Source: Allacma fusca
Taxonomy: Eukaryota; Arthropoda; Collembola; Symphypleona; Sminthuridae
Direction: 5' to 3'
Length of the DNA: 64,000 bases
Assembly: GCA_947179485.1 (NCBI GenBank)
Contig: OX359249.1
Coordinates: forward strand, 32,908,250-32,972,249
A program made the position numbers and the translations under genes. Positions 12,471 to 55,547 of the stretch are shown piece by piece (positions within the stretch are counted from its first letter, which is position 1; each line of letters starts with the position of its first letter). Below the pieces are notes generated by a model. It was not told where the DNA came from, ran no database searches, and saw only the letters and a list, made by a program, of their open reading frames with translations.

Positions 12471-13018
12471 GTCACATGACCTTACTGTGTCACTAGTAGT
12501 CACATGACCTCAGATTGATCTTCCTGTGACACTAGTAGTCACATGACCTCAGATTGACCTTCCTGTGACACTAACAGTCACATGACCTCAGATTGACCTT
12601 CCTGTGACACTAACAGTCACATGACCTCAGATTGACCTTCCTGTGACACTAACAGTCACATGACCTCAGATTGACCTTCCTGTGACACTAGTAGTCACAT
12701 GACCTCAGATTGACCTTACTGTGTCACTAGTAGTCACATGACCTCAGATTGACCTTCCTGTGACACTAACAGTCACATGACCTCAGATTGGCCTTCCTGT
12801 GACACTAACAGTCACATGACCTCAGATTGGCCTTCCTGTGACACTAACAGTCACATGACCTCAGATTGACCTTCCTGTGACACTAATAGTCACATGACCT
12901 CAGATTGACCTTCCTTTGACACTAGTAGTCACATGACCTCAGATTGACCTTCCTGTGTCATTAATAGTCACATGACCTCAGATTGACCTTCCTGTGTCAT
13001 TAATAGTCACATGACCTA
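12471..13018. repeat. 39-bp minisatellite inside the hAT-type element
   Basis: Thirteen full units begin at 12499 and follow every 39 bases to 13005, with partial units at each end (a 28-base one first). Each unit carries GTCACATGAC, CTCAGATTGACC and TGTGAC-spacer-GTCACA, the last being an inverted repeat. Units differ mainly in the 5 to 7 base spacer (ACTAACA, ACTAGTA, ATTAATA). Between 12301 and 12470 more diverged relatives of the unit can be recognised. Confidence 0.95.
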
Positions 13019-51286: not shown

Positions 51287-51527
51287 ATGATTCAAAAATT
51301 GCTACTCATCTTCCTCAGCTTGTGTTTGCTGAGCAAAGTTTGTCATGGCACAGCTGAGGGAAATAAAACCGGAGGAGCAACTCTTCCGTCAACGTCAGTC
51401 CCGACAGTGCAGAAAAATGGAGATGATTCATTGAACGACAGCAAACCATCAGTCAATTCTCCAGACGTCAGTGAAGCATTGAGCAACTCTACTTCAAGTG
51501 TGGGTTCATCCAGAAAAGCCAAATCAG
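51287..51527 (+). CDS. Gene 1 coding exon 1 (signal peptide and Ser/Asn-rich segment)
   Basis: This exon encodes residues 1-80 plus the first base of codon 81. It ends TCAG with donor GTAGGT at 51528. The following intron (51528-51635, 108 bp) closes with a long T tract and TTCAG, and the joined codon is G|CC (Ala), keeping the frame of the long exon. A reading upstream from 51242 in the same frame lacks an ATG until 51287, so the start is unambiguous. Confidence 0.88.
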
Positions 51528-54500
51528 GTAGGTACAGGGTATATAGTTCATAGGAACTTGTGCATACATCTTCTATACTACTATACTTGTTCTTGTTGTC
51601 GGTTGGGTTTCACTATAAGTCAATTTTTTTTTCAGCCTTACCAGACGAAACAAACTATGACTCTTACACGTATTCAGATACAGCAAAAGAACAAGATCTG
51701 GCCTCTGAGGAGTCAAAATCGACGGAAGGGAAAAGTGTCTACTACTATTACTACCCCGCCACGATGACTGGTAATGTAAATGGGAAATCCTTGTCTAACA
51801 AGGACAGTCAGGGTGAAGAGGACCAGCCCATTCCCTCCTACAGTTATCCGCAGGCCAGTGGCTACCAAATTTCCCAATCACCAGATCCAGGCTATGGTTA
51901 TCCAGCACCTCCTGCAGACAGTCCAAGTCCACAGTATGGATATCCTCAGCAAGACACTTCATCTGGGTACACTCCCGCTCCTCAGCCTCCAGCTTCTCAA
52001 TATGGTTATCCAGATGCTGATACTCCAGCTCCCCAATCAGGTTATGGTTACCCCTCTCCAGCGCCTCCAGCTCCTCAACAGGGGTATGGGTACTTTGCTC
52101 CAGCACCCCAACCACCAGCTCCTCAATATGGATACCCAGCACCAGCTCCACCAGACACTACAACCCAAGCTCCTCAGTCCGGGTACGGTTACCCAGCACC
52201 TCAATCCCCACCAGCTCCATCACAAGGATACGGATATTCAAGTCAATCTGTTCCAGCTATGTCACCAGACAGCGGATACCAATCTCCACCTCAGCCACCA
52301 GCGCCACAGCAAGGTTATGGATATGCTTCTCCACCCCAATCCAATGGTGGTTACAGCACAATATCGCAGGTCCCACCACCAAGTAGCGGTTACCCTGCTC
52401 CAATGGCACCCCCACCTGCCTACGGACCTCCTCCGTCCCCATCACCTTCCTATGGATCTCCTCCATCACCTGGCTACGGATCTCCTCCGTCTCCACCACC
52501 CGCACAAGGTTATGGTAGCCCACCCGCAACGGACTATGGTTACGGTCAAGGAGCTGGAAATCTTCCCGCTATAACTACAGATGGAGTCGGTGGTGGAAAT
52601 TTTGGTCAGACTGGAGGTGGTCCTAATGGTGGCGGAGATTTTGGACATGGCCCTCCTCAAGGAGGCCCTCTACCTCCCGCCCCTGGACCCGCACCCGTCA
52701 AAGGCTCCATTGATTATGTCCTGATTCCGCTCATTCTCATCGGTATCACTGCCCCAATTTTTGTCGTTGTTTACGTCGTTTTGGGAAGTTTTGAGGCGAA
52801 GTTGGCCCCAGTGCTTCTTCGACGGTCTTTATCATCCCTCTCATCGTACGCATCTACACTGAAGGTACACACAATATAATAACAGTTGTAATGGGAGTAA
52901 TATCAATATCGCATTCTATAACTTAATTGCTTTTTGAAACATCAAACAAATTGGTTTTCATTGAAGTCCTGTTTATTCTGATAATGGAATTATTCCTACA
53001 CTACTATTTCTTAGCCAACGACAGACGCACTCATGACTTCAGTCTCTCGAGCACTAGATAGTCAACAATGCTGGGAAAGGATGGCATGTGAGGCTGGGAC
53101 ATTTTGCCATCGGCACGGAATGTCTGACTCAGGCTGGCTTGACAAGTAAGACCTTTTCATTTCCCATCAAGACGTACCAATTATTGCAAGTTATAATTTA
53201 CTTGGAACGTTTAGAAATTACAAAACGCTTATCGCTTCAATTCAATGGCTTTCCTTCAAATTAGCCGGAGTTTCCATTACTACAGCATGCGAACGATCGG
53301 TTATGTGTTTCTTCTTTAATTTCTCAACTACAATTTGTCTAATTACTTGACAATGTTATAACTAAAAGGAAGAATTTGGAGAGGGATCTCTTACCGGAAG
53401 TAACTTACTTATACTATCCTCAAAAATGAGTTGAACTCTGGGACAGACACTAGCCGGTGAGACAGGATGGGGTGATGGAGGGGAATTTTAAAAAAAGAGG
53501 TGAAGTGGAAAGGTTGAGGAGACGAAAAATTGGAAGTTTTCTGAAACCAAGTAAATCCTTAAGCTGAAATTGGGTACGGGGCGAAAGTCTCTCATCCCTG
53601 TATTCAACTCCCACAAGGATTGTCGTAGGCAATAATAATCCACTGTTTCGTTTTGACTGAGTGTTAGCCGTTACCCTACATACAAGCACACTCTCACTGT
53701 GCAACATCCTTAATACTTTTTCGAATACCGCTGTGACGAACCCAAAGTACAAATCTTATTCTTTGCACGTTATTAAGGCAAGTCTAAGTATCGTGGGTTA
53801 GATGATAGTAAATGATCACCACCACCATCCTATGGTTACAAGTGGCAACCAGCAGTCAGGCAGTCACCTAACACATACACTCAAGCTGCTCTCAAGCTGT
53901 TTACTTTCGGTGGTTATCCTAATGCCTTTGAACAAAAGCGCGATCATAAGGTTTAGTTTATGTCGCCGACTGAAAAATACATACTTTTCCTTCTAAATTT
54001 CCCATTGATTCATCTCATGCCATACAGTGGAGTTTTTCACGTACAAAGAGTAGGTCACAAGTGTTTCATGTAATCAGGCTTTGGCTTGGGGATTTTCTTA
54101 GCATTTTTTTTCTCTCTCAACTTCCGATATCTCATCAAATGGGATAAAACTCTGGCCTCAAGTGAACCTAATTGCACCGTTTCTGTTCCAAGTCTTTTTC
54201 TTTTTCCCCTCTCTGACGCCACCACTTGACCAGTAACTATAAGCTACATAACTTTCTTAAGTCAGGGCAGACATCACAATATGAAGAAATGACGAGGCCA
54301 CTCATGCAGTAAGAATTTGTGTCAATTCTAACACATTCCAATCTGTAATAATTCAGGGCTCCACTAATTCTGAACCGCAGAAATGTAGTCATTCCTGCTT
54401 TGGCAAATGCCGCGATGGTAATTAAGAATTTGATTCCAATTGAGTACTTTCAACAGGCTATTCCTTCCTCTGGGAGTATCAAATCTGTAAACAATGTCTC

Positions 54501-55547
54501 TTTTAATCAGGAAACCGATCAATTGAACTTTGTTCCACTTTTAAACTGAGGAGAGAATATTTTTAGGGGAACAATTACTTGTAAGTAAATTTGTTTTTGG
54601 AGTAAACTGTAAGTACGGGGCAATTAGGAAACCTATTAATACTTGAAGTAACGTCAGCAGCCCAGGGAGCATTTTTCAGGCCACTAATGTATTCAAGATA
54701 ACGGTGGAAATCATGTAAATCAATAAACTGGAAATATATATATAGAGAGAGAAAGAGCATAGTAGACATATGAAAATAAATTAATAATATCATTTTTTCG
54801 TATAAAAAAAGGCCCAAAGATGAATCAAGTCAACTTTTATCAGGTTCTATTAATCATGCATATGTATAACTTGACAGACTAAAGATAATATCGCCATGGG
54901 AAGATCTAAAATGCAAGTTGAGCAAAATGGTCCGAGAGTACCTTGTGAACCTCAAACTGGATTTCATGCTCGATCTTTGCAATTTTTCATATACGTGTAT
55001 ACATGTTAAACTTGCTTTAACTGTGCTCCCATGCATTGCCTGCATACCATGTGACTTTGGAGTACGATGAAGATGCTAGGGCATAAGTGACCATGGGAAT
55101 TATGCAGGTGTAATTACTTTGTTGTAGGCAAACATAAGGAAACACAGGGCTTGATCGTACGTACTTAGTGTGGCGAGTTGTTTGTTTTTTAATATAAACA
55201 TAAAATATGGGCTTTTGTCGCTTAATGAAATTGTGCCAAAATGCCTGTATGACTATAATACAACACAAATGAGCGTGTGTCTCAAGTATGATTTTACTAC
55301 TGCTTATATAGTTGATTGCGGTCCTAAATCCATGCACTTTACCACAAATTATGTACAATTTTTTAATGAAAATTGATGGAAATTGTGGACTAGCGAATAA
55401 TTGCGAGTTGAATTTTCTAAACTATAATTTAAAAATTACAGGACGCTTCATCCCTTCATTCCGAAGAACTACCAAATGCCATACGAAACATTCATGTCTT
55501 CATTGCACAGCTCCAACGAAGATTGCACCGTCTACAAGTGTCTATAA
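51287..55547 (+). CDS. Tyr/Pro-rich single-pass membrane protein with cysteine-bearing tail (four exons)
   Basis: Function is unknown. Seen: exons 51287-51527, 51636-52864, 53015-53145 and 55442-55547 join in frame to 568 residues. Residues 1-21 are a clear signal peptide (hydrophobic LLLIFLSLCLL, then CHG). Residues 22-80 are Ser/Asn/Thr-rich with sequons at N26, N50 and N67. Residues ~144-395 are a Tyr/Pro/Gln/Ala-rich domain with ten YGY motifs, grading into YGSPPSP units. Residues ~397-436 are Gly-rich. A transmembrane helix spans ~441-463, followed by KLAPVLLRR. The tail has C509, C515, C521, C562 and C567 in the order CWERMACEAG ... DCTVYKC. The start ATG is the one directly before the signal peptide. 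Known: arthropod DM4/12 proteins carry a similar Cx(3-5)RxxCE ... C..Y..C pattern. Inferred: a type I membrane protein with an adhesive or cross-linkable ectodomain. Plant extensin-like or silk-like composition could mislead, so family assignment is tentative; existence of the gene is well supported. Confidence 0.85.
51636..52864 (+). CDS. Gene 1 coding exon 2 (YGYP-rich domain, Gly-rich linker, transmembrane helix)
   Basis: The exon encodes residues 81-490 in 1229 bases, by far the longest convincing coding stretch in the window. It ends CTGAAG with donor GTACAC at 52865, on a codon boundary. The sense frame has the YGYP-type repeats. A second frame also stays open for about 260 codons because the repeats are Pro/Gly-codon rich; that frame has no start context or sensible composition. 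Confidence 0.9.
53015..53145 (+). CDS. Gene 1 coding exon 3 (CxxxxxCE cysteine motif)
   Basis: The acceptor TTTCTTAG ends at 53014 after a 150-bp intron. The exon encodes residues 491-533 plus two bases of codon 534, including CWERMACEAG. The donor is CAA|GTAAGA at 53146, close to consensus. If this donor is not used the reading frame meets TAA at once (Lys then stop), so an unspliced form would end at residue 534. Confidence 0.8.
55442..55547 (+). CDS. Gene 1 coding exon 4 (terminal exon, DCTVYKC end)
   Basis: The acceptor AAAATTACAG ends at 55441. The phase matches exon 3 (AA|G, Lys534) and the exon gives 34 more residues before TAA at 55545-55547, followed directly by TAG. The last residues are DCTVYKCL, the paired-cysteine ending expected after the exon 3 motif. 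Intron 3 is 2296 bp. The polypyrimidine tract is weak, so the exon rests mainly on phase and cysteine pattern. Confidence 0.7.

What the first reader, a model, noticed from the sequence alone, without database searches (positions are those of the whole stretch)
51287..55547. Membrane-anchored YGYP-repeat protein, possibly undescribed
A signal peptide, a Tyr/Pro-rich ectodomain of about 250 residues with ten YGY motifs, a Gly-rich hinge, one membrane helix and a five-cysteine tail make an unusual combination. Tyr/Pro repeats are typical of cross-linked or adhesive extracellular proteins. Anchoring such a domain in the membrane would be a way to attach cells to cuticle or another matrix. The function is inference.
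Basis: partly seen in the sequence, partly recalled or inferred. Interest (0 to 1): 0.7.

Follow-up and report, generated by a model that had tools for sequence, protein, structure and literature searches.

The report
Springtail YGYP-repeat gene with cysteine tail
A springtail gene encodes a secretory-pathway protein with a Tyr/Pro-repeat region, a hydrophobic membrane-type segment and a cysteine tail, and that tail belongs to an uncharacterised gene family with at least ten loci in the same genome, one of which also carries the same kind of repeats.

Summary
The gene is as drawn: four GT-AG exons, 568 residues, ten YGY motifs, a signal peptide, one hydrophobic segment and five tail cysteines. 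Contig lengths point to the springtail Allacma fusca, chromosome X1.

The tail is not unique. A profile of nine other loci of this genome scores it at 39.4 bits; no shuffle reached this, even with the cysteines held in place. All ten loci end in C-x-E-[RK]-x2-C ... C-x3-[YF]-x-C, and eight share a phase-2 intron at nearly the same place.

One relative, on a contig close in length to chromosome X2, carries YGYP repeats too, but after the hydrophobic segment instead of before it. A plain 'ectodomain, one helix, inner tail' picture therefore cannot put both sets of repeats outside.

The family looks like a distant branch of Pfam DM4_12, a domain of unknown function; one member's module passes its cut-off, the window protein does not match. 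Adhesion to cuticle remains inference: no expression or localisation data were available.

Verdict: observation confirmed; interpretation partly supported; new variant of a known, uncharacterised kind. Interest 0.38.

The parts
51287..51349 (+). signal peptide (residues 1-21, cleavage site estimated by eye)
   Evidence: hydrophobic N-terminus, KD19 up to 1.93
51287..51527 (+). exon 1 (coding part)
   Evidence: CAG|GTAGGT donor, in-frame join
51636..52864 (+). exon 2: acidic/Ser-rich stretch, Tyr/Pro repeats, Gly/Pro hinge, hydrophobic segment
   Evidence: 441-codon open frame
51845..52546 (+). Tyr/Pro repeat region (residues 151-384), all ten YGY motifs
   Evidence: 10 YGY (167 to 381) against at most 5 in 20,000 shuffles of residues 151-415
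52547..52702 (+). Gly/Pro-rich hinge (residues 385-436)
   Evidence: translation
52703..52819 (+). hydrophobic, proline-containing segment (residues 437-475)
   Evidence: KD19 above 1.6, peak 2.66
53015..53145 (+). exon 3: first half of the cysteine module (CWERMACEAG...WLDK)
   Evidence: best hit in the window for profiles with no window sequence
53146..55441 (+). phase-2 intron inside the cysteine module, splitting the K codon of WLDK
   Evidence: same phase and nearly the same place in 7 other C-x-E-R loci and, with longer loops, in 7 DM4_12-type loci
55442..55547 (+). exon 4: second half of the module (...DCTVYKCL stop)
   Evidence: C-x3-[YF]-x-C ending shared by all ten aligned loci; second-best, but weak, window hit of the nine-locus profile (E 0.67)

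Best explanation
It is a member of a springtail multigene family of secretory-pathway proteins. The core is a signal peptide, a proline-containing hydrophobic segment and a four-cysteine module (C-x-E-R-x2-C ... C-x3-[YF]-x-C), to which members add different low-complexity regions. Here the addition is a long YGYP/Tyr-Pro region. Most likely working (inference): the protein goes to the surface of a cuticle-secreting or glandular epithelium; the hydrophobic segment inserts in the membrane as a hairpin or re-entrant anchor, so that the repeats and a disulphide-bonded module both face outward; the tyrosines then join the surface matrix by stacking or dityrosine cross-links. Shown: gene structure, family membership, shared intron, repeat-bearing relative. 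Inferred: membrane insertion, topology, disulphides, cross-linking, tissue.
For: Nine-locus profile without the window: 39.4 bits, reached by 0 of 2,000 free shuffles and 0 of 5,000 shuffles with cysteines fixed. Leave-one-out recovers ten of ten loci, each above all of 2,000 shuffles. C, E, C, C, C invariant and two R nearly so over ten loci. Intron in the module: phase 2 in 8 of 10 loci, 71 nt after the first Cys in 6, 74 in L039, 77 in the window; absent in L014 and L019. YGYP relative L028/L030: N-terminal hydrophobic start, hydrophobic residues 83-114, then repeats with 8 YGY, then the module at 326. A hydrophobic span precedes the module in 10 of 10 loci; it is 54-57 residues, enough for two passes, in L014, L019 and L041.
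Against: The window segment (about 33-39 residues) is short for two passes, and the charges after it (K469, R476, R477) favour an ordinary inner tail. Flanking charges differ between members, e.g. L040 has lysines before and acids after its segment. By the KD threshold an N-terminal hydrophobic start shows in 5 of the 8 loci whose start I had (window, L028, L033, L041, L043), not in L039, L044 or L014. No structure, expression or localisation. Hairpin, disulphides and cross-linking are not tested.
Confidence: 0.42

Rival explanations
1. Ordinary type I membrane protein: cleaved signal peptide, YGYP repeats outside, one helix, cysteine module in the cytosol.
For: One hydrophobic stretch at 433-475 and more positive charge after it than before it.
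Against: In the relative L028 the repeats and the module both follow the hydrophobic segment, so the same rule would put its YGYP repeats in the cytosol. Four invariant cysteines in a family with signal-peptide-like starts suggest a lumenal module.
Confidence: 0.35
2. Fully secreted structural protein: the hydrophobic segment does not anchor the protein but packs in the matrix, like a hydrophobic block in a silk- or elastin-like chain.
For: Repeats occur on either side of the segment in two relatives; segments contain prolines (sequences).
Against: KD19 up to 2.66 is that of a membrane helix; repeat-less members L033 and L039 keep the segment.
Confidence: 0.18
3. Kinship, not topology: the module is simply a DM4_12 (PF07841) domain, and this is a divergent DM4_12 protein.
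For: Same spacing C-x2-R-x2-C-E and a later Cys pair; profile-profile probability 59-65%; PF07841 matches 3 of 10 modules, and L014's module alone passes the cut-off (24.8 against 22 bits); 7 of 9 DM4_12-type loci have a phase-2 donor between the Cys pairs.
Against: The window protein and its module have no PF07841 match, nor have six other modules; a seven-locus DM4_12-type profile gives the window 7.8 bits, reached by 5 of 5,000 and 5 of 2,000 shuffles; whole L014, L019 and L033 stay below 22 bits.
Confidence: 0.55
4. A chance or decayed low-complexity frame, not a gene.
For: Other frames are open for long stretches across the repeat DNA, e.g. 264 codons at 51780-52571; no RNA evidence.
Against: Exon 3, and weakly exon 4, match the family profile, and the intron between them has the family's phase; no stop or frame break in the joined frame.
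Confidence: 0.02

Closest known systems
Pfam PF07841, DM4_12 (DM4/DM12 family), domain of unknown function
   Same: Cysteine spacing C-x2-R-x2-C-E then a later C-x-x-[YF] pair; phase-2 intron between the pairs; profile-profile E 6e-5 and 9e-5; one family member's module passes the cut-off.
   Different: No match of the window protein; shorter loop (77 nt against 83-101 nt from first Cys to intron); ends C-x3-[YF]-x-C instead of the C-x6-C seen in L006-L009.
YGYP relative L028/L030 (G000:C9, about 37538666-37539964) in the same genome
   Same: YGYP repeats, C-x-E-R module, W-x-D-K with a phase-2 intron in the same codon.
   Different: Repeats lie after the hydrophobic segment, not before it.
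Osiris family (DUF1676, PF07898), insect membrane proteins
   Same: Signal peptide and transmembrane region; two planthopper Osiris proteins also carry DM4_12 (passages of PMC12825958).
   Different: No DUF1676 match in this genome at E up to 1; none in the window protein.
Resilin and other Tyr-rich cuticle proteins (recalled, no call)
   Same: Tyr/Pro/Gly repeats such as YGxP.
   Different: No Pfam domain of any kind found in the window protein.

Membership tests
C-x-E-R module family of this genome | module profile match | tested here: met
   39.4 bits against a profile of nine other loci, 0 of 2,000 shuffles and 0 of 5,000 Cys-fixed shuffles
C-x-E-R module family of this genome | C-x-E-[RK]-x2-C ... 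C-x3-[YF]-x-C | tested here: met
   CWERMAC ... CTVYKC
C-x-E-R module family of this genome | phase-2 intron 71-77 nt after the first Cys | tested here: met
   window 77; 8 of 10 loci have it
C-x-E-R module family of this genome | hydrophobic segment before the module, signal-peptide-like start | tested here: met
   window residues 433-475 and 1-23, module at 509; in the family the segment is in 10 of 10, the start over the KD threshold in 5 of 8
DM4_12 (PF07841) | score over the curated cut-off of 22 bits | tested here: not met
   no match at E up to 10; no match of the module
DM4_12 (PF07841) | four conserved cysteines near the C-terminus | tested here: met
   C509, C515, C562, C567; feature as described in PMC12825958
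DM4_12 (PF07841) | profile-level relation to DM4_12-type loci | tested here: inconclusive
   hhalign probability 64.6 and 58.9; L014's module passes the cut-off; window alone 7.8 bits, 5 of 5,000 shuffles as high
DM4_12 (PF07841) | same fold | not testable with these tools
   by its description the fold tool takes letters read straight from window DNA or from loci of certain tools; the spliced module and whole-genome loci do not seem to qualify, so nothing was sent
Osiris (PF07898) | DUF1676 domain | tested here: not met
   no Pfam match in the protein, none in the genome at E up to 1

The most novel reading that the evidence does not exclude
The YGYP block is a movable or repeatedly gained part: two relatives, one on X1 and one on the contig close to X2, carry it on opposite sides of the hydrophobic segment. 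If both blocks work outside the cell, the segment cannot be a simple single-pass helix in both proteins, and the family would be a modular set of hairpin-anchored surface proteins to which springtails attach different sticky or cross-linkable blocks (YGYP here and in L028, YYHYHVP in L014 and L019, poly-Gly in L040, and YGAP in the presumed first exons of L041 and L043).
Probability: 0.3. Interest if true: 0.55.

Novelty: new variant of a known kind. Interest (0 to 1): 0.38.

Why it matters
It turns an odd single gene into a family with a testable signature (C-x-E-R module plus conserved phase-2 intron) and variable surface-type blocks. If the products sit on the epidermis they would be candidates for how springtails tie cells to, or build, their cuticle. 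The two YGYP relatives with swapped order are a direct test of how such proteins sit in the membrane.

Tried and rejected
No match: Pfam and PDB with the tail; viral and prokaryote contigs with the tail. PDB with the family profiles gave only weak hits: A3 three (a designed helical repeat protein, a molecule named LHD101B4 and an NADH-quinone oxidoreductase subunit, E 0.05 to 0.39), A5 one molecule named FD15 (E 7e-5 for the whole sequence, no stretch passing alone). I take these as helical tendency, not homology. Direct search of the genome with the window tail missed the relatives: the one other place (L005, E 1.34) shows CWQRILC in one frame and was not pursued.

Considered and dropped: Osiris; a relation between the window gene and its minus-strand neighbour (no similarity found beyond layout).

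Results against my reading: the early DM4_12-only profile (L006-L009) did not support the window tail (3.0 bits, 83 of 5,000 shuffles as high). L028's module scored poorly with the early profiles: 6.9 bits with the two-locus profile (7 of 5,000 shuffles as high), 9.3 and 10.3 with two mixed ones (4 of 5,000 each), 0.4 with the DM4_12-only one (322 of 5,000). L033 came in at E 1.34. L014 was picked from the ten DM4_12 places by eye because it looked like the window tail, so its score with the window is not a blind test; L028 came in by its repeats, L033 by L028's module and L039-L044 by L033's, without use of the window's module.

Rows left out: of ten DM4_12 places I used seven for alignment A4; L012 (second exon not settled) and L013 (divergent) were left out, and L014 was moved to the C-x-E-R group. 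For L041, L043 and L044 the join of the first exon to the module exon is presumed, not tested; L040 and L019 were used without a settled start. For L006-L009, L012, L013 and L015 the intron donor is the one I judged best of those listed; one search listed only phase-2 donors, and one search then listed every GT for L033, of which the one at 71 nt has the best donor form to my eye.

Change after checking: one search showed that L014's module alone passes the DM4_12 cut-off; I raised the DM4_12 rival from 0.50 to 0.55. Structure prediction was not run (see the membership table).
Full report
Place. The window is G000:C5:32908250-32972249. The total (392,743,791 in 91 contigs against 392,786,974 in 95 scaffolds) and C9 (48,059,808 against X2 at 48.07 Mb) differ slightly, so it is that assembly or a near version. 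This is inference from lengths.

Gene. Four exons with GT-AG borders join in frame to 568 residues. YGY is far above chance for the composition of residues 151-415 (10 against at most 5 in 20,000 shuffles).

First searches. The tail has no Pfam match at E up to 10, no PDB match, no relative in viral or prokaryote contigs, and the genome search with it returned its own three exon pieces and one weak place (E 1.34). By these alone it would look unique.

How the family was found. The tail resembled the cysteine pattern of DM4_12 (PF07841, recalled at that point), so I searched the genome with that Pfam family and got ten places. One of them below the cut-off, L014, reads CPERFACQAGSF...NCSEFKC, close to the window's CWERMACEAGTF...DCTVYKC; I picked it by eye. 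L014 led to L019. A profile of L014 and L019 alone gave the window tail 24.8 bits, against a maximum of 10.9 in 5,000 shuffles, and its best hit anywhere in the window is exon 3 (E 5e-6; 3,284 segments of the window and four loci were scanned).

The YGYP relative. A search with the repeat region alone returned two places in the genome at E up to 0.001: the window gene and L028 on C9 (14 candidates scored). L028 is a 390-residue protein by my join: hydrophobic start, hydrophobic residues 83-114, repeats with 8 YGY, then CAERLACE...RWMDK, a phase-2 intron in the K codon, and ...DCSKFIC. The window has WLDK with the same phase-2 intron in the same codon. The order of repeats and hydrophobic segment is reversed between the two genes. 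L028's repeats could match by low complexity alone; the module and the intron make the kinship convincing. Direct window-L028 module similarity is modest (12.4 bits, 0 of 5,000 shuffles as high), and L028 scored poorly with my early profiles; with nine other loci, the window among them, it scores 42.8 bits.

More members. The L028 module led to L033 at E 1.34, a repeat-less member. Searching with L033 gave nine rows, two of them itself; the seven others carry the C-x-E-[RK]-x2-C motif: L039, L040, L041, L043, L044, and the places of L028 and L019 again. Their E-values run from 0.001 to 0.53, so the motif, profile scores and intron, not these E-values, make the case. Several have Tyr- or Gly-rich parts: L014 and L019 (YYHYHVP), L040 (poly-Gly with SYGVGG), and, in upstream frames that I presume to be their first exons, L041 (SYGAP, SSYGAE) and L043 (YGYQ, YPAP, YGAP).

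Strength of the family claim. Over ten modules, C, E, C, C, C are invariant and two R nearly so. Leave-one-out profiles recover ten of ten, each above 2,000 shuffles; the window scores 39.4 bits (E 2.6e-14 for one comparison) and stays above 5,000 shuffles in which its cysteines were held in place (maximum 15.6). The same profile, blind to the window, ranks exon 3 first (E 2e-7) and exon 4 second (E 0.67, weak by itself) among the window's segments, which also supports the join of exons 3 and 4. Donor positions after the first Cys: 71 nt in L028, L033, L040, L041, L043, L044; 74 in L039; 77 in the window; all phase 2; none in L014 and L019. For L041 and L044 other in-frame joins of another phase exist; I preferred the phase-2 ones for their splice sites.

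Relation to DM4_12. In seven of nine DM4_12-type loci the donor I judged best between the cysteine pairs is also phase 2, at 83-101 nt (L006, L007, L008, L009, L012, L013, L015; L010 and L011 read through). Profile-profile probability is 64.6 (five modules) and 58.9 (ten modules). PF07841 matches 3 of 10 modules: L014 at 24.8 bits, over the cut-off of 22, L033 at 19.3 and L019 at 17.3. Whole L014, L019 and L033 give 21.0, 14.5 and 16.2 bits. The window gives none, and the seven-locus DM4_12-type profile gives it 7.8 bits, reached by 5 of 5,000 shuffles. A distant common origin is likely; membership of the window protein in DM4_12 is not shown. DM4_12 itself is called function-unknown, with four highly conserved cysteines near the C-terminus, in passages of PMC12825958.

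Mechanism. Shown: a hydrophobic N-terminal start, a hydrophobic segment, a conserved four-cysteine module and a biased Tyr/Pro region. Inferred: secretion, surface location, disulphides, tyrosine-based cohesion or cross-linking. The reversed order in L028 argues against applying one simple single-pass picture to both proteins. A hairpin or re-entrant anchor with both parts outside would fit both and would keep the cysteines in an oxidising place, but the window segment is short for this and its flanking charges favour the simple picture. I give the hairpin 0.42, type I 0.35 and full secretion 0.18; the DM4_12 rival is about kinship and is scored apart (0.55, raised from 0.50).

Print. My paper searches found no description of this protein or family: DM4_12 (by their titles most of its 18 listed hits are Drosophila genome or transposon papers), PF07841 and variants, YGYP, Allacma with transcriptome and protein, Tyr/Pro-rich with springtail and cuticle, Collembola cuticle amino acids, and two broader searches. 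Apart from the passages of PMC12825958 I saw only listings with starts of abstracts for these. Arthropod protein databases could not be searched, so automatic entries for this gene or its orthologues may well exist.

Noticed in passing
window 58443-57196 (-): Neighbour gene, two exons (58443-58156, 57552-57196), 214 residues: signal-peptide-like start, Pro/Gly/Gln-rich region, one hydrophobic segment, no cysteine tail, tail to tail with the YGYP gene. No other place found in the genome with it and no significant Pfam match.
   Followed up: partly
window 12477-13017: Tandem array of a 39-bp unit, about 14 copies at 95% match; the unit holds TGACCT twice, which resembles a nuclear-receptor half site (recalled).
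   Followed up: no
L030 5860-6500: Beside the YGYP relative lies what looks like the start of a secreted collagen-like gene with EPYGSPGIPSPP-type repeats.
   Followed up: no
L014 and L019: Both have a Leu/Pro-rich hydrophobic stretch followed by long methionine runs.
   Followed up: no
window exon 2, residues 87-97; upstream frames of L041 and L043: Window NYDSYTYSDTA resembles RDSYTDAA, which L041 and L043 share upstream of their hydrophobic segments; possibly a second conserved motif, not tested.
   Followed up: no
L005 (G000:C5:35838544-35838768, -): A frame with CWQRILCRA, similar to the module start; no second half was looked for; maybe chance or a remnant.
   Followed up: no
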